Source: an uncultured Clostridia bacterium (GTDB lineage: Bacteria; Bacillota; Clostridia; Oscillospirales; Acutalibacteraceae). Taken from it: a DNA stretch of 64,000 bases. Where the stretch lies: positions 1 to 64,000 of the forward strand of contig CANQXE010000007.1 in NCBI GenBank assembly GCA_947627725.1, read 5' to 3'. The position numbers were made by a program, and so were the translations under genes. Under the pieces are notes generated by a model that saw only the letters and a program-made list of their open reading frames with translations, did no database searches and was not told where the DNA came from. Shown one piece after another: positions 50,483-58,976 of the stretch (positions are counted from its first letter, which is position 1; every line of letters starts with the position of its first letter).

Positions 50483-51824
50483 AACATTATCAAAAATTAA
50501 TCAGATGGAAACATACAGCATTCCTAAGCTGATTGCGAAATATTCGGTTACTACCTTCTGCGCACTATTTTTTAATGAGCTTTATAACATTGTTGATACT
50601 CTTTTTGTAAGCAGAGGAGTAGGCGATAACGCAATGGGCGGAGTGTCAATAATATTTCCTTTTGTAATGATACAGGGGGCGGTTTCTCAGACAATAGGCG
50701 CAGGCTCGGCGTCTATCATATCAAGACTTCTCGGCAAAAAGGATTACGAACAGGCCGGCAGTGTAACGGCAAACGCTATGTGCGCTTTTTATATAACCGC
50801 TGCGGCAATAACAGTTATCGGGCTGACATTTATAAATCCTCTTTTAAACCTCTTTGGCGCAACTGATGATATAATGCCGTACGCAAAGGCGTATTTTACA
50901 ATTATGCTTCTTGGAAACGTATTTTCAACAGGCTTTTCATCAATAATCAGAGCAGAGGGGAAAATGGTTTATTCCCTTTTGATATGGCTTATACCGACAG
51001 CAATAAATGTTTTGCTTGACGCGGTATTCATATACGGACTTCATATGGGCGTTAAGGGCGCCGCGCTCGCAACGGTAATAAGCTATTTCTCAAGCTTTGT
51101 TATGAGCATAATATTTTTTACAAAACTCTCTGTACAGCGCTTCAGTCATATTAAATTAAAATTAAAAACGGTAACGGAAATAATTACCTTAGGCGTGCCG
51201 ATGCTGATTCAAATGGGAAGTATGTCAATACTGTTTGCTGTTGTCAACAAAATGCTCAGTGCGTCGGGAGGGACACTTGTAATTAATACATTTGCATATT
51301 TAAGCAGAATAATTACCTTTTCTATCGTTCCGTTTACTTCGATGGCAATGGCGGTATCCCCGATAATCAGCTATAATTTCGGCGCCGAAAGAAATAACAG
51401 GGTAAATAAAGCCTTAAAATACTGTGTTATTTTTAGCGAAGCATACGCCGTTTTTGCTATGATTGCGGCTTTTCTTTTTCCTCAGATATTTTTAAAAATA
51501 TTCACGTCCGATACGGGCATTATTTTATCGGGGGTAAACGCACTGCACATTATTTCACCCTCATTGCTGTTTGTACCTGTTACAATAATAACAGGCTCAT
51601 ATTTTCAGGCAATAGGAAAAAAAGCATCATCTGCTTTGGCAAACAGTCTGATACTTATTTTTCTCGCAGTAAATATATTTATTTTATCAAAAAGAATGGG
51701 TATAAACGAAATCTGGCTGTCAATTCCGGTTTCATGTCTGCTCGCGTGCATTGTCTCAATAATATTAATTAAAGCTCGGGGGATTAACGTCATTGCCGGC
51801 AAAGGCATTGGGACCGGGGTTTGA
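50475..51824 (+). CDS. MATE-family efflux transporter
   Basis: 449-residue multidrug and toxin extrusion transporter, about twelve membrane segments in two related halves. Family features: LIAKYSVTTFCALFFNELYN at the start, FVSRGVGDNAMGGVSIIFPF, GAGSASIISRLLGKKDYEQA, and the equivalent in the second half, AMAVSPIISYNFGAERNNRV. It is translationally coupled to the kinase gene. The last 60 nt overlap the end of the manganese catalase gene on the other strand. Confidence 0.94.
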   Translation: MDKTLSKINQMETYSIPKLIAKYSVTTFCALFFNELYNIVDTLFVSRGVGDNAMGGVSIIFPFVMIQGAVSQTIGAGSASIISRLLGKKDYEQAGSVTANAMCAFYITAAAITVIGLTFINPLLNLFGATDDIMPYAKAYFTIMLLGNVFSTGFSSIIRAEGKMVYSLLIWLIPTAINVLLDAVFIYGLHMGVKGAALATVISYFSSFVMSIIFFTKLSVQRFSHIKLKLKTVTEIITLGVPMLIQMGSMSILFAVVNKMLSASGGTLVINTFAYLSRIITFSIVPFTSMAMAVSPIISYNFGAERNNRVNKALKYCVIFSEAYAVFAMIAAFLFPQIFLKIFTSDTGIILSGVNALHIISPSLLFVPVTIITGSYFQAIGKKASSALANSLILIFLAVNIFILSKRMGINEIWLSIPVSCLLACIVSIILIKARGINVIAGKGIGTGV

Positions 51825-52427
51825 CATTGAAAAATACATTCGCGCGGCTTTGGTTGTGCCAAAGTCCTTATTTGAACCGCTGTCCTGCACCTCATTAAAG
51901 GCGTCCCTGAACATCTGATTGTGCGCTTCCTCGCGGTTAAGAAGAAAATCAATCGTTTCTCTGACTTTTTTATCCTTAATCTGCCTGTACAGATATTCAT
52001 AAACCACCTTTGCCCTCTGTTCGGAGGCAATATTGCTGAGCAAATCCGCGCATAAATCACCTGTGACCGTAACGTAATCTCCCGTCCAAGAATAACCGGA
52101 CGCATTGATTAAACCGGGATTAAGCCCTGTCAGTACATGCGTTTCAATTTCTCCGACGGAAACATTATGATAATCAACATCATGACCGTTGAGCAGATTT
52201 ATTGTCTGCGCCACCATTTCCATATGACCGAGTTCTTCCGCCGCAATGTCCAAAAATAAATCCTTAATTTTCTGATCCTTTATTCTGAAGCTTTGAGACA
52301 TATATTGCATTGCAGCCTTTAGCTCACCGTTTGCACCGCCAAGCTGCTCCTGCAAAAGTGCCGCGTACTGTGGATTAGGTCCCTCCACCTCTACGGGATG
52401 AAACAACTGTTTTTCGTGCTTAAACAT
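51765..52427 (-). CDS. Manganese catalase (CotJC-like)
   Basis: 220-residue di-manganese catalase that breaks down hydrogen peroxide. The four-helix bundle ligands are visible: Glu in GGANGELKAAMQY, AEELGHMEMVAQTI, SEQRAKVVYEYLY and NREEAHNQMF. Small members of this family are spore-coat proteins (CotJC) in Bacillus; Clostridia also use them for oxygen tolerance. The ATG at 52427 follows AAGGAG; a GTG at 52436 overlaps that site. The 3' end overlaps the MATE gene by 60 nt in convergent orientation. Confidence 0.93.
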   Translation of the reverse strand: MFKHEKQLFHPVEVEGPNPQYAALLQEQLGGANGELKAAMQYMSQSFRIKDQKIKDLFLDIAAEELGHMEMVAQTINLLNGHDVDYHNVSVGEIETHVLTGLNPGLINASGYSWTGDYVTVTGDLCADLLSNIASEQRAKVVYEYLYRQIKDKKVRETIDFLLNREEAHNQMFRDAFNEVQDSGSNKDFGTTKAARMYFSMSNPGPNAFAGNDVNPPSFN

Positions 52428-52527
52428 AATAATCACTCCTTATAATCCTTGTATTATTAGCTTTCCAATAATTATCATAAATATTAAAATAAGAATTATA
52501 AAAAACAATTGACTGAATAATACAGCC

Positions 52528-52566: not shown

Positions 52567-52980
52567 TCATATATGATGCTTATTTTTAACCTTTAGACGC
52601 TCCATCGCACGTGAAAGGTTTGCTTTTGAGTGATAATATTCAAGCTGAGAATGCTTTTCTCTCAACTCCTCTTCCGCTCTCTCCTTAGCCTCCTGCGCAC
52701 GCCGCTCGTCAATTTCATCGGGAAGTTCAGCCGAAATACAGACAAGCGTTGCGGTATTATCAAGAAATTCCAGAAAGCCGTTGCCGACAAACGCTTCAAT
52801 AACCTTTCCGTGTGAATCGGTTATTTTCATTTCCCCTGTTTCAATAGGCATAATACAGTTTTCATGGTTTGCAAGAAAGCCCTCAAGTCCCATATCCACG
52901 TGGGGAACAATAAGAGACTGTGCCTCGCCGTCAAAAAATATCTTATTTGAGGCAATGATTTTCAGTTTAAAGGTATTCAT
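52567..52980 (-). CDS. atpC: ATP synthase subunit epsilon
   Basis: 137 residues, the epsilon subunit of F1, which caps the central stalk and can inhibit ATP hydrolysis. The N-terminal beta-sandwich is typical: FFDGEAQSLIVPHVDMGLEGFLANHE and VFVGNGFLEF-type strands. The two-helix C-terminal part is RRAQEAKERAEEELREK…NLSRAMERLKV. It lies 9 nt after atpD, the usual last gene. Confidence 0.95.
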   Translation of the reverse strand: MNTFKLKIIASNKIFFDGEAQSLIVPHVDMGLEGFLANHENCIMPIETGEMKITDSHGKVIEAFVGNGFLEFLDNTATLVCISAELPDEIDERRAQEAKERAEEELREKHSQLEYYHSKANLSRAMERLKVKNKHHI

Positions 52981-52989
52981 AAATTCACC

Positions 52990-55277
<2,288 letters not shown>

Positions 55278-55289
55278 TATTTACCTTCT

Positions 55290-57308
55290 TTATTTTGATG
55301 CCGCCGACTTAAATTCATCAGCCGCGTCTAAAATCTGTTCTTTTATATCGTCATCGAGTACCTTGTCTCTCTCAATAGTGCTGCTGATTTGAGGATAGTT
55401 TGAATCAATATATTCAAGCATATCCGCCTGAAATGACTTTATTTCATTTACGGGAACATCAACAAATTTTCTTCCTGTCGCGGCAACAAGAGTAATAACC
55501 ATTTGAGAAAGCGAAAGAGGATGACCGAGCGGCTGCTTAAGAAGCTCCATAAGCCCCTTGCCGTAATTAAGCTGAGCTTTCGTTTCTTCATCAAGGTCTG
55601 ATGAAAACTGAGTAAAGACTTCCATTTCCCTAAACTGCGCAAGGTCGATACGCAGAGAGCCTGCCGCCTTTTTCATAGCCTTAGTCTGCGCCGCACCGCC
55701 GACACGCGATACTGACAAGCCAACATTTACGGCAGGGCGCATACCGCTGAAAAACAAATCGCTTTCAAGGAAAATCTGTCCGTCCGTTATTGAGATAACA
55801 TTCGTCGGAATATACGCGGAAACGTCGCCCGCCTGCGTTTCAATAATCGGAAGCGCTGTTATTGAGCCTCCCCCAAGCTCATCACTGAGCTTGCTTGAAC
55901 GCTCAAGTAAACGTGAATGAAGATAGAATACGTCACCCGGATAAGCCTCACGTCCCGGACTTCTTTCAAGAAGAAGCGACAACGCGCGGTATGCCACGGC
56001 GTGCTTGCTCAAATCATCATAAACAATAAGGCAATCCTTGCCCTGATACATAAAATGCTCGGCAAGCGCTGTTGCCGAATACGGTGAAATATACTGAAGC
56101 GACGCAGGGTCGGAGGCGGTAGCGCAAACAACGATTGTGTATTCCATTGCTCCCGACTTTTCAAGCGTATTCACAAGATTTGCGACGCTTGACGCCTTCT
56201 GTCCGATTGCGTTATAAATACAGATAACATCCTTACCCTTCTGATTGATAATCGTATCAAGAGCAATAGAGGTTTTACCCGTCTGCCTGTCGCCTATAAT
56301 AAGCTCTCTCTGTCCGCGTCCGATAGGAAACATGGAGTCAATGGAAAGAATACCCGTAGCCATAGGCGTATCAACGCTCTTACGGTCAACAATAGACGGA
56401 GCGTTCTGCTCAACGGGGCGGTAATCCTCCTCCTTGATATCCCCCTTGCCGTCAATAGGCTCACCGAGAGCATTTACAATTCTGCCGATAAACCCACTGC
56501 CGACAGGAATACCCGCTTTTCTGCGTGTACGCTTTACCCTTGTACCCTGATGAATACCAACGTCACTGCCGAATAAAATAACGCCGATCTGATGCTTTTT
56601 AATATCCTGCACCATACCCTTGACGCCGTTTTCAAAAACAACAATCTCGCCGTACATTGCATGCTCTAAGCCGTGAATGGTTGCGATACCGTCACCCACT
56701 CTGACAACAGTACCTATCTCCTCGCTGTCCGACCTGAGTTGAAAATCCTTAATATCTTTCCTTAAAACAGCGATTACCGATTCATTATCGGCAGTGCTTT
56801 CACGAGCAGTTTTCATTACCTGTCTTTTGATTGCGTCAAGCTTATTTCTTATGCTGAAATCAAATTCCTCATCACCAAAGCGGATAATAAAACCGCCGAT
56901 AAGGCTTTCGTCCTTGACAATATCAACCTTTGCTGTTCCCGCGCCGGCTTTTTTGCAAACAAAATCCCGTATACCCTCAAGCTGTTTTTCATCGGGAGGG
57001 GTAACGCAGTAAACTGTTGCGCTCGCGATATTATTTCTTTTATCAATCTCACTGATATAAGCCTGCGTAATCTCTTTTAAATCAGAAATCCTGCAATCAT
57101 TTGCCAATTTGCAGATAAACGGCTTAACCGACGGCGAAAAAAGCTCGTCAATCACAGTTTTCTTTTCATCTGACAAAACATTCGGATTATCTAATATATC
57201 AGCAAGCTCCTTTGAGGAGGTTACAAGCTTCAACGCATCCTCAAGACTTGATACACTGACCTGTGAGTTTAGCAGTGAATCAAGATAATTATCAATATTC
57301 TGAATCAT
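55290..57308 (-). CDS. atpHA: ATP synthase delta–alpha fusion protein
   Basis: One frame of 672 residues encodes both subunits. Residues 1–164 are delta (OSCP): helical N-terminal domain, then the C-terminal DESLIGGFIIRFGDEEFDFS and NKLDAIKRQV. From Met165 the chain is alpha, ~508 residues, a normal length: SDSEEIGTVVRVGDGIATIHG, Walker A in IGDRQTGKTSIALDTI, the arginine finger region in SVSRVGGAAQTKAMKK. The junction contains TAATG (56818–56814) one frame off, the usual stop/start overlap, so a single-base change would separate the genes. Met165 (ATG at 56816) could also serve as an internal start, though only AGG precedes it. Gene order fits (b, delta-alpha, gamma). The fusion is read directly; whether it is real in the cell is open. 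Confidence 0.85.
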   Translation of the reverse strand: MIQNIDNYLDSLLNSQVSVSSLEDALKLVTSSKELADILDNPNVLSDEKKTVIDELFSPSVKPFICKLANDCRISDLKEITQAYISEIDKRNNIASATVYCVTPPDEKQLEGIRDFVCKKAGAGTAKVDIVKDESLIGGFIIRFGDEEFDFSIRNKLDAIKRQVMKTARESTADNESVIAVLRKDIKDFQLRSDSEEIGTVVRVGDGIATIHGLEHAMYGEIVVFENGVKGMVQDIKKHQIGVILFGSDVGIHQGTRVKRTRRKAGIPVGSGFIGRIVNALGEPIDGKGDIKEEDYRPVEQNAPSIVDRKSVDTPMATGILSIDSMFPIGRGQRELIIGDRQTGKTSIALDTIINQKGKDVICIYNAIGQKASSVANLVNTLEKSGAMEYTIVVCATASDPASLQYISPYSATALAEHFMYQGKDCLIVYDDLSKHAVAYRALSLLLERSPGREAYPGDVFYLHSRLLERSSKLSDELGGGSITALPIIETQAGDVSAYIPTNVISITDGQIFLESDLFFSGMRPAVNVGLSVSRVGGAAQTKAMKKAAGSLRIDLAQFREMEVFTQFSSDLDEETKAQLNYGKGLMELLKQPLGHPLSLSQMVITLVAATGRKFVDVPVNEIKSFQADMLEYIDSNYPQISSTIERDKVLDDDIKEQILDAADEFKSAASK

Positions 57309-57790
57309 TATTCATCACTGCCTTCGTTTAAAAATTTGTCATACAAATCGCTGTCAGTCTGAGCGTTTACATTTCTGCCGACAACCTTTTCAGCCGTTTC
57401 CATTGCAAGAGCCGCAATCTCTTCCTTAACGGCTCGTCTTGCCTTTTCCGTCTCAAAGTCTGCCGTTTTTTTAGCGTCTGCTTTAATTTTATCCGCATCA
57501 TTCTGAGCACGGTCAATGATTTTATTATATTCAGCCTTTGCGCTGTTTCTGGCGTCAACAATGATTTTCTTTTTCTCATCCTCGACGCTGTCAAGCTCCT
57601 GCTCATACTGAGCCTTCATTTCATCAGCCTGTTTCTGCACCTCATCGGCATCACTGAACTGCTTGTCAATCAGTTCCTTTCTCTTATCAAGTGTTTTTTT
57701 AATCGGCTTGAAAAGAAACGCTCTCATAAGAACATAAAAAATAATTAAATTAATAACCGTCCATAAAATATTCCAGTCAAACTTTAACAT
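57308..57790 (-). CDS. atpF: ATP synthase subunit b
   Basis: 160 residues, the peripheral stalk subunit. One N-terminal membrane segment (ILWTVINLIIFYVLMRAFLF) is followed by a long charged coiled coil with DKRKELIDKQFSDADEVQ and KADAKKTADFETEKA. It ends at, and overlaps by one base, the delta-alpha start, so assembly partners are made together. Confidence 0.95.
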   Translation of the reverse strand: MLKFDWNILWTVINLIIFYVLMRAFLFKPIKKTLDKRKELIDKQFSDADEVQKQADEMKAQYEQELDSVEDEKKKIIVDARNSAKAEYNKIIDRAQNDADKIKADAKKTADFETEKARRAVKEEIAALAMETAEKVVGRNVNAQTDSDLYDKFLNEGSDE

Positions 57791-57834: not shown

Positions 57835-58080
<246 letters not shown>

Positions 58081-58107: not shown

Positions 58108-58917
58108 TTAAGCAGCTTCTGTAAGCTCTTTCGCTTTATTTTTACTGTGTTTATACATTTTCTTTCGTCGTCTGCGCTTCTTTTCGGTAGGCTCTTCCTC
58201 CTCAACTGCCTCCTGTAAATAAAGAGCAGTTAAAAATACAAAAATATATGCCTGCAAAAGTCCGTCAAACAAATCAAAATACAAGCTGAATACTACCGGA
58301 ACAACTACCGGTATCGGGAGAACTGCCTTTATTAACTCCATAATGGTAAATGCCGCGATTACATTGCCGAAAAGTCGCATACAAAGCGAAAGCGGTTTTG
58401 TAAATACCTCAAGAATATTAATGGGTGTTATAAGCGCGACCGGCTTTGTAAATGCTTTAAGTCTGCCCAAAACGCCCTTATCCTTAAAGGCGCAGTATTC
58501 AATCAGAACTATGCTTGTTATTGCCATAGCGGCGGTAACCTGCATACTTTTAGTCGGGGGCTTAAAACCGAAAATGACTATAAGGTTTGACGCGCCTATA
58601 AAAAGCGCCATACTCATAAGCCAAGGTATAAATTTCTCAACCTTTTCCCCCATTAGTCCTTTAAAAAAAGCTTCACTTTTTTCATACAGCATTTCAAGCA
58701 TTTGCTGCCGTTTTGAAATTTCTCCCGTGACCTTGAGGTTTCTGGTAAGAATTACAGCAAGTATCGTAAATACCGCTATAATTATCCACGAAACGACAGT
58801 TGTCTCGTCAAAGCCTATTTTGATTCCGCCGATATTAAAGCTGAACACCTCTTTAATCTCAAGCTGTTCAGTCAGCTCCTTCTGTAAATCAAGCTTCATC
58901 ATCACAGGACCGAGCAT
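58108..58917 (-). CDS. atpB: ATP synthase subunit a
   Basis: 269-residue stator channel subunit with five or six membrane segments. The essential Arg is in LCMRLFGNVIAAF, and the last segments include YFDLFDGLLQAYIFVFLTALYL. After the final helix comes an unusual cytoplasmic tail of ~35 residues, first acidic (EAVEEEEPTEKK) and then strongly basic (RRRRKKMYKHSKNKAK). I use the ATG at 58917, which has GGGAGGTGA upstream; an earlier in-frame start at 58959 overlaps the promoter. First gene of the operon. Confidence 0.94.
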   Translation of the reverse strand: MLGPVMMKLDLQKELTEQLEIKEVFSFNIGGIKIGFDETTVVSWIIIAVFTILAVILTRNLKVTGEISKRQQMLEMLYEKSEAFFKGLMGEKVEKFIPWLMSMALFIGASNLIVIFGFKPPTKSMQVTAAMAITSIVLIEYCAFKDKGVLGRLKAFTKPVALITPINILEVFTKPLSLCMRLFGNVIAAFTIMELIKAVLPIPVVVPVVFSLYFDLFDGLLQAYIFVFLTALYLQEAVEEEEPTEKKRRRRKKMYKHSKNKAKELTEAA

Positions 58918-58947
58918 TGCAATCACCTCCCGTAAATGCTGTGCATT

Positions 58948-58976
58948 ATTATACACCATTTGTTTCCAAAATTCAA
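58948..58976 (-). promoter_or_regulatory. Promoter of the ATP synthase operon
   Basis: Minus-strand TTGAAT (58971–58976) and TATAAT (58948–58953) with a 17-nt spacer, giving a leader of about 25 nt before atpB. Confidence 0.85.

What the first reader, a model, noticed from the sequence alone, without database searches (positions are those of the whole stretch)
55290..57308. ATP synthase delta and alpha subunits encoded as one protein
Seen: an uninterrupted frame with complete delta (1–164) then complete alpha (165–672). Known: F1 has three alpha but one delta, and delta sits on the alpha N-termini, so a fusion is sterically sensible but stoichiometrically odd. Either three delta domains are tolerated, free alpha comes from internal initiation at ATG 56816 or proteolysis, or a one-base error hides the normal TAATG overlap at 56818–56814. 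Fusions known to me join delta to b in mycobacteria, not to alpha.
Basis: partly seen in the sequence, partly recalled or inferred. Interest (0 to 1): 0.8.

Follow-up and report, generated by a model that had tools for sequence, protein, structure and literature searches.

The report
Fused delta-alpha subunit of ATP synthase
In this bacterium two parts of the ATP-making enzyme, one normally present once and the other three times, are made as a single protein; relatives show that the fusion is real, and it may be a step towards ATP synthases with more than one side stalk.

Summary
ORF 55290-57308(-) joins a complete delta subunit in frame to a complete alpha subunit; no other alpha, delta or V-type ATPase was found in the genome. 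Of 31 classifiable loci of the genus, 24 are full fusions, 5 keep only the delta C-domain (deltaC-alpha), 2 are separate. Eight of eight relatives align without an internal gap, so an error is excluded. A start for free alpha is not conserved. Cultured isolates (Pseudobutyrivibrio, Butyrivibrio, Oribacterium) carry fusions. On trees, fusion arose more than once in Clostridia, and within the genus the delta N-domain was lost from fused genes in three places. A further form, b'-deltaC-alpha, was found in 17 of 394 genomes of the order. DeltaC-alpha has the layout of an engineered enzyme (9JC1; [quoted passage not shown] its authors noted natural cases in Acidaminococcus. My searches of the held library showed no mention of the full-length or b' forms. 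Best reading: all three alphas carry delta; stalk number (1 to 3) is open and testable.

The parts
57036..57308 (-). delta N-terminal domain (residues 1-91), six-helix bundle; kept here, lost in some relatives
56799..57029 (-). delta C-terminal domain (residues 94-170), beta-alpha-beta-beta-beta-alpha; binds the b dimer in known enzymes
   Evidence: 9jc1 match starts at residue 94
56814..56816 (-). internal in-frame ATG (residue 165); no Shine-Dalgarno match by the script's list, not conserved
56787..56798 (-). short linker (residues 171-174), low confidence in the model
56733..56786 (-). alpha N-terminal helix (residues 175-192), retained as in free alpha
55293..56732 (-). alpha core: barrel, nucleotide-binding domain, C-terminal domain (residues 193-672)
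57308..57790 (-). subunit b (160 aa), the only b seen in the operon; its stop overlaps the next ATG
57835..58062 (-). subunit c (75 aa)
   Evidence: assigned by reading
58108..58959 (-). subunit a (up to 283 aa)
   Evidence: assigned by reading
54393..55277 (-). subunit gamma (294 aa)
52990..54378 (-). subunit beta (462 aa)
   Evidence: assigned by reading; it is the second, weaker match
52567..52980 (-). subunit epsilon (137 aa)

Best explanation
A genuine, conserved delta-alpha fusion subunit of the only F-type ATP synthase found in the genome of an uncultured Clostridia species (probably from the gut, judging by the names of its nearest relatives). Shown: one reading frame with complete delta and complete alpha, kept in frame by selection, no other alpha or delta found in the genome. 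Inferred: the F1 head is built from three delta-alpha chains, so three delta C-domains are held on the three alphas by a covalent tether of about the same length as in the engineered deltaC-alpha enzyme. At least one of them anchors the b dimer as usual. The tether takes over the job of the delta N-domain (gripping the alpha N-termini), so that this domain becomes less constrained and is lost repeatedly, giving deltaC-alpha. The full-length form in the window would be the first step (fusion) and deltaC-alpha the second (loss of the domain that limits the stalk number to one). Whether the window's own enzyme carries one stalk or several is not settled.
For: One alpha and one OSCP match in the own genome; no V-type subunit C match there. 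31 classifiable loci of the genus: 24 full, 5 short, 2 separate. No internal gap against 8 of 8 relatives; junction dN/dS 0.11, 0.19 and 0.17 in the 3 of 8 comparisons where synonymous sites were not saturated. 36 of 57 full fusions lack an ATG in the scanned stretch before alpha; 27 of 112 fused loci lack any start codon between the delta GGF motif and the alpha GDG motif. Five short-fusion genomes of the genus (73-98% complete) hold one OSCP match each, covering only about the last 75 profile positions, inside the alpha ORF. The five short loci of the genus fall in three places among full fusions; grouping them is rejected, p-AU 4.7e-7 for all five, 1.1e-8 to 1.5e-5 in pairs of groups. N-domain/C-domain identity ratio 0.71-0.75 in full fusions against 0.87-0.92 in separate deltas at alpha identity 70-90%. 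The engineered chain 9jc1_I is the only one of the 60 PDB matches shown whose match spans delta and alpha (third by E-value), aligned 94-657 to 3-567, 564 against 565 residues, and ranks first by Foldseek. In the published engineered enzyme the delta-alpha chain replaces delta and alpha, with up to three b2 stalks and a subunits (PMC12229609, Discussion section and passages).
Against: No protein-level data: proteolysis into free alpha is not excluded, and 40 of 112 fused loci have some start codon near the alpha N-terminus with a short Shine-Dalgarno-like string (no chance expectation computed). The window's protein keeps the delta N-domain, which in the published logic blocks extra stalks, and positions 55, 62 and 70 of that domain stay conserved in full fusions. 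At alpha identity 65-70% the N/C ratio does not differ (0.83 against 0.84). Two relatives (L027, L029) have the genes apart. The AlphaFold models are single chains of moderate quality (pLDDT 68.3 and 72.5), and the Foldseek match to 9jc1 has an rmsd of 10.4, so domain placement is not reproduced.
Confidence: 0.72

Rival explanations
1. Mixed stoichiometry: most alpha is free, made by internal initiation near residue 165 or by cutting of the linker, and only one fused chain per F1 supplies delta, giving an ordinary one-stalk enzyme.
For: ATG at residue 165 in the window and at the same place in L004, L005, L007, L008, L032, L051 and L052; 40 of 112 fused loci have some start codon near the alpha N-terminus with a Shine-Dalgarno-like string of 4 or more bases; the linker has low model confidence and may be exposed. 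In the b'-deltaC-alpha form a Met in the b' part is conserved in 10 of the 12 aligned sequences, in some with a purine-rich stretch a dozen bases or more upstream; a start there would give deltaC-alpha without the membrane helix.
Against: No Shine-Dalgarno match at the window's ATG; no ATG in that stretch in 36 of 57 full fusions and no start codon at all in the linker of 27 of 112 fused loci.
Confidence: 0.18
2. Multi-stalk enzyme (a sub-case of the best explanation): all three delta-alpha chains bind a b dimer, each with its own a subunit, so that ions per ATP rise two- to threefold; in the full-length form the N-domains are pushed aside.
For: Engineered deltaC-alpha does this; linker length equal within one residue; helix-I residues A15 and A17 of the N-domain fall from 0.79 and 0.74 in separate deltas to 0.24 and 0.21 in full fusions; the b'-deltaC-alpha form would put a membrane anchor on every alpha; the own genome has RnfC, so an Rnf ion pump is likely.
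Against: The window's protein keeps an N-domain, one of which could sit on the axis and block the others; I found no measurement of b and a stoichiometry in a natural fused enzyme; part of the helix-I difference is shared by separate deltas of the same clade (A15 0.73, A17 0.50 there).
Confidence: 0.35
3. Sequencing or assembly error, or a decayed gene.
For: None found for the window. (One distant short fusion, G128, does have stops inside alpha.)
Against: Same fusion in independent assemblies, isolates and one complete genome (AP018536.1, L064); purifying selection; no other rotary ATPase found.
Confidence: 0.005

Closest known systems
Engineered Bacillus PS3 deltaDeltaN-alpha fused FoF1 (Ueno et al. 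2025, PMC12229609; I take PDB 9jc1 to be its entry from title and release date)
   Same: delta C-domain joined to the alpha N-terminus through a linker of about the same length; residues 94-657 of the window protein align with residues 3-567
   Different: the window protein also keeps the delta N-domain that the engineers removed; its short-form relatives do not
Natural deltaDeltaN-alpha fusion of Acidaminococcus fermentans and two UniProt entries named in the same paper
   Same: natural fusion of delta C-domain and alpha; predicted by those authors to be multi-stalk
   Different: full-length delta kept in the window; different bacterial group (recalled: Negativicutes); I did not fetch those sequences
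b-delta fusion of Mycobacterium/Gordonia (7jg5 chain d; PMC5709465 passages)
   Same: delta fused to another subunit of the same enzyme
   Different: partner is b, so the three-to-one conflict with alpha does not arise
Canonical bacterial F-type ATP synthase operon
   Same: all subunits and gene order
   Different: delta and alpha are one chain; no separate delta

Membership tests
F-type ATP synthase subunit alpha (TIGR00962) | score above the curated cut-off over nearly the whole model | tested here: met
   769.3 bits against 484.45, positions 4-500 of 503
ATP synthase delta/OSCP (PF00213) | score above gathering cut-off, N- and C-domain | tested here: met
   97.5 bits against 22.3, profile 24-171 of 172; six helices plus beta-alpha-beta-beta-beta-alpha
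deltaDeltaN-alpha fusion (Ueno design) | delta C-domain fused in frame to the alpha N-terminus | tested here: met
deltaDeltaN-alpha fusion (Ueno design) | delta N-domain missing | tested here: not met
   N-domain present in the window; missing in 5 of 31 genus loci and 33 of 80 named loci
deltaDeltaN-alpha fusion (Ueno design) | more than one peripheral stalk and a subunit per F1 | not testable with these tools
   needs protein stoichiometry or cryo-EM
mycobacterial b-delta fusion | b and delta in one chain | tested here: not met
   b is a separate 160-aa ORF
N-type (alternate) F-type ATPase | alternate-type alpha (TIGR03324) above cut-off; no delta (the lack of delta as a defining feature is recalled) | tested here: not met
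   604.1 bits, below the 750.5 cut-off; delta present

The most novel reading that the evidence does not exclude
[quoted passage not shown] the window's full-length fusion is the living intermediate and is itself able to hold more than one stalk. The b'-deltaC-alpha lineage has made the three-stalk state obligatory by tying every alpha to the membrane.
Probability: 0.35. Interest if true: 0.92.

Novelty: new variant of a known kind. Interest (0 to 1): 0.75.

Why it matters
The H+/ATP ratio of ATP synthases is held to be tuned in nature through the size of the c-ring (PMC12229609, introduction passages). Ueno et al. showed in 2025 that it can also be raised by adding stalks and a subunits, and proposed that nature may do so. 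This locus and its relatives offer a path by which that could evolve (fuse, then lose the limiter), place the second step three times in one genus, and name cultured isolates in which it can be tested. If true it would change the energy budget assumed for rumen and gut fermenters with Rnf pumps.

Tried and rejected
Internal start as a general source of free alpha: not supported, though not excluded in single species. A second alpha or delta elsewhere in the genome: none found. Single origin of all fusions: rejected on a 39-row tree, p-AU 2.4e-48; but one origin for the window's genus plus the Lachnospiraceae fusions is not rejected (p-AU 0.29). The groups for the AU tests were chosen after seeing the 142-row tree, which the tool warns weakens them. 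In that tree 44 of 139 inner branches are starred and some rows are long (L042, L043, L188), so the total number of origins is uncertain. In one search one outgroup row (L091) fell among the genus rows and the exact sister of L031 is weakly supported (87/59). The trees are of alpha alone; transfer of whole operons is not excluded. The 80 named loci were the best 80 of 594 by similarity to the fused query, so their counts are biased.

Literature: nine searches of the held PMC library ran (three of them returned nothing). Judging by listed titles and starts of abstracts, and by the four papers that I opened, I saw none on a full-length delta-alpha or b'-delta-alpha fusion; most subscription papers are not held. 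PMC4478896 (abstract and passages seen) reports all F0F1 subunits, including F1 ABDEG, in 62 of 62 butyrivibrio genomes, with no occurrence of 'fusion'. [quoted passage not shown] PMC6377231 (passages) was not used. PMC12229609: outline and abstract, passages, and the whole Discussion section.

Full report
WHAT IS THERE. The ORF 55290-57308 (minus strand, 672 aa) is uninterrupted. Pfam finds delta/OSCP at 20-163 and the three alpha domains at 195-666, all above their cut-offs; NCBIfam atpA scores 769.3 bits against a cut-off of 484.45. It sits in a complete operon a-c-b-[delta-alpha]-gamma-beta-epsilon, with the b stop overlapping its ATG. The AlphaFold2 model from 28 full fusions (mean pLDDT 68.3, pTM 0.50) shows six helices for the delta N-domain, the beta-alpha-beta-beta-beta-alpha C-domain, a short uncertain linker, the alpha N-helix and the barrel. 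A model of the short form of Butyrivibrio hungatei (mean pLDDT 72.5, pTM 0.67) shows the same C-domain topology at its residues 5-79.

IT IS NOT AN ERROR. The own genome (2.46 Mb, 58 contigs, 100% complete by the tool's estimate) gave one alpha and one delta match, both in this ORF. A search for V-type subunit C found nothing there, while the same search rang in 7 of 14 control genomes. So the fused enzyme appears to be the only rotary ATPase. Of 37 genomes of the genus (own and 36 others), 31 gave a classifiable alpha locus: 24 full fusions, 5 short, 2 separate (one of them, L009, is cut in alpha by its contig end). Of the other six, three have the genes broken at contig ends (G003, G011, G012) and three gave no F-type alpha match (G016, G019, G020). 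Against eight relatives the fused ORF aligns without an internal gap, and the junction (residues 161-196) shows dN/dS 0.11, 0.19 and 0.17 against L051, L003 and L004; synonymous sites are saturated in the other five.

FREE ALPHA? The internal ATG at 56816 is shared by only part of the near relatives and has no Shine-Dalgarno match by the script's list. Of 57 full fusions 21 have an ATG in the stretch 48 to 20 codons before the alpha GDG motif (6 with a short Shine-Dalgarno-like string); of 55 short or triple fusions 30 do (11 with such a string). Of all 112 fused loci, 40 have some start codon there with such a string, and 27 have no ATG, GTG or TTG in the scanned linker at all. No chance expectation was computed. 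Internal initiation can therefore not be the general source of alpha, but single species may use it. Proteolysis is not excluded.

THE FAMILY OF FORMS. A profile of 66 separate deltas sorts 184 alpha loci into 66 separate, 57 full, 53 short (delta C-domain only), 6 with a separate delta that lacks most or all of its N-domain, and 2 triple b'-deltaC-alpha. Among the 80 named loci, which were chosen by similarity and so are biased, 33 are short, 27 full, 20 separate. They include isolates: full in Pseudobutyrivibrio xylanivorans DSM 14809, Oribacterium parvum ACB1, 'Lactobacillus rogosae' ATCC 27753 and the complete genome AP018536.1; short in Butyrivibrio hungatei DSM 14810, Shuttleworthella satelles DSM 14600 and Absicoccus porci YH-panp20. 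Pfam finds OSCP above its cut-off in nine of nine examples given. In a draw of 393 genomes of the class, 224 have an OSCP match. I searched 72 of these, those with weaker OSCP matches, for alpha: 71 have one. I read the DNA of the alpha locus in all 54 and of six of the 22 alpha loci; the rest I judged by frame length, 500-523. Result: 35 genomes have a fused gene as their only alpha at E 1e-120 (8 full, 27 short, one of these, G128, with stops inside alpha), and 4 more have a fused second alpha (1 triple, 3 short), so at least 39 of 224. Second operons of the other genomes were not checked, so this is a lower bound. Stand-alone deltas without an N-domain also exist (72 aa in L044, 77 aa in L178), so N-domain loss does not strictly need a fusion.

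THE TRIPLE FUSION. Searching 394 genomes of the order with the 736-aa protein of L041, 205 have an alpha match at E 1e-100 and 17 of them match from residue 1 to 6 of the query on. In 16 the delta profile hits only the C-domain, between the b'-like N-terminus and alpha; the 17th runs off its contig. Pfam finds ATP-synt_B, OSCP and alpha in one chain in L041 and L038. 14 of the 17 genomes show no second alpha and three do (G507, G779, G785), but only two candidates per genome were scored in that call, so second alphas may be missed. In these enzymes every alpha would carry a membrane helix unless it is cut or started inside: in the 12 sequences aligned, a Met in the b' part, before the delta C-domain, is conserved in 10, in some with a purine-rich stretch a dozen bases or more upstream.

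EVOLUTION. On a careful tree of 39 alphas the five short loci of the window's genus fall in three places among full fusions; forcing them together is rejected (p-AU 4.7e-7; pairs of groups 1.1e-8 to 1.5e-5). The two separate loci form one group next to a full fusion, either a re-split or a retained old state; their delta keeps the usual helix-I motif. Across Clostridia a single origin of all fusions is rejected (p-AU 2.4e-48). Ruminococcus with the window's genus, Ruminococcus with Monoglobus, and Onthocola with the Lachnospiraceae are each rejected as one group, while the window's genus with the Lachnospiraceae is not (p 0.29). These groups were named after seeing a first tree. In full fusions the N-domain is less conserved relative to the C-domain than in separate deltas (ratio 0.71-0.75 against 0.87-0.92 at alpha identity 70-90%; 0.83 against 0.84 at 65-70% and 0.84 against 0.90 at 60-65%; the pairs of sequences are not independent). 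Helix-I small residues A15 and A17 drop from 0.79 and 0.74 to 0.24 and 0.21, though separate deltas of the same clade already stand at 0.73 and 0.50. That helix I takes part in binding the alpha N-terminus is recalled, not from a call.

MECHANISM. Among the 60 PDB matches shown for the window protein, 9jc1_I, third by E-value, is the only one that spans delta and alpha: an engineered chain present three times in its entry. It is also the first Foldseek match, though with an rmsd of 10.4, so only domain order and folds agree, not their placement. Window residues 94-657 align with its residues 3-567, so the natural linker equals the engineered one within a residue. I take 9jc1 to be the entry of Ueno et al. 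2025 (PMC12229609; abstract, passages and the whole Discussion section seen). They removed the delta N-domain because it sits on the threefold axis and limits the stalks to one, fused the C-domain to alpha, and obtained up to three b2 stalks and a subunits, an H+/ATP of 5.8 against 3.0, and ATP synthesis at about half the proton-motive force; triple-stalk particles were rare in their cryo-EM and the enzyme was slower. They also report natural fusions without N-domain in Acidaminococcus fermentans and two UniProt entries and predict multi-stalk enzymes in nature. The short and triple forms here fit that prediction. The window's full-length form does not fulfil it, since it keeps the limiter, but it is what a first step would look like, and the tree puts the short form inside it three times in this genus. 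I infer three fused chains per F1 with one to three stalks. RnfC is present in the genome (524.9 bits), so a low ion-motive force is a plausible setting; this is inference.

KNOWN OR NEW. Known: engineered deltaC-alpha, its natural occurrence in a few species, b-delta in mycobacteria. Not seen in the held library by the searches listed in Tried and rejected: full-length delta-alpha fusion, b'-deltaC-alpha fusion, their spread and repeated origin. Protein databases may annotate single entries as fusions; I could not check that.

Noticed in passing
L191-L207 (17 genomes of the same order), L245: b'-deltaC-alpha triple fusion, a single chain with membrane helix, delta C-domain and alpha; implies a membrane-anchored alpha unless it is cut or started inside.
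   Followed up: partly
L044:3008-3226, L178 (reverse strand), L236, L237, L241, L243: Stand-alone delta frames of about 71-113 codons that match only the delta C-domain, next to a separate alpha.
   Followed up: partly
L027, L029: Two species of the window's genus have delta and alpha apart, with the delta TAA directly followed by the alpha ATG in the same frame, and a delta with the usual helix-I motif unlike the fused sisters.
   Followed up: partly
G068, G100, G260, G437 (L245-L248): Genomes with two F-type alpha genes, one of canonical length and one fused; possibly two ATP synthases with different ion/ATP ratios in one cell.
   Followed up: no
L249 (G258): A second alpha gene in G258 with no delta profile match in the 2.6 kb read around it.
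   Followed up: no
L238 (G128): A short fusion whose alpha frame is interrupted by stops; decay or assembly error not resolved.
   Followed up: no
window 51765-52436 (-): A 223-aa ORF beside the operon that reads like a manganese-catalase/CotJC-like protein (recalled resemblance, not tested).
   Followed up: no
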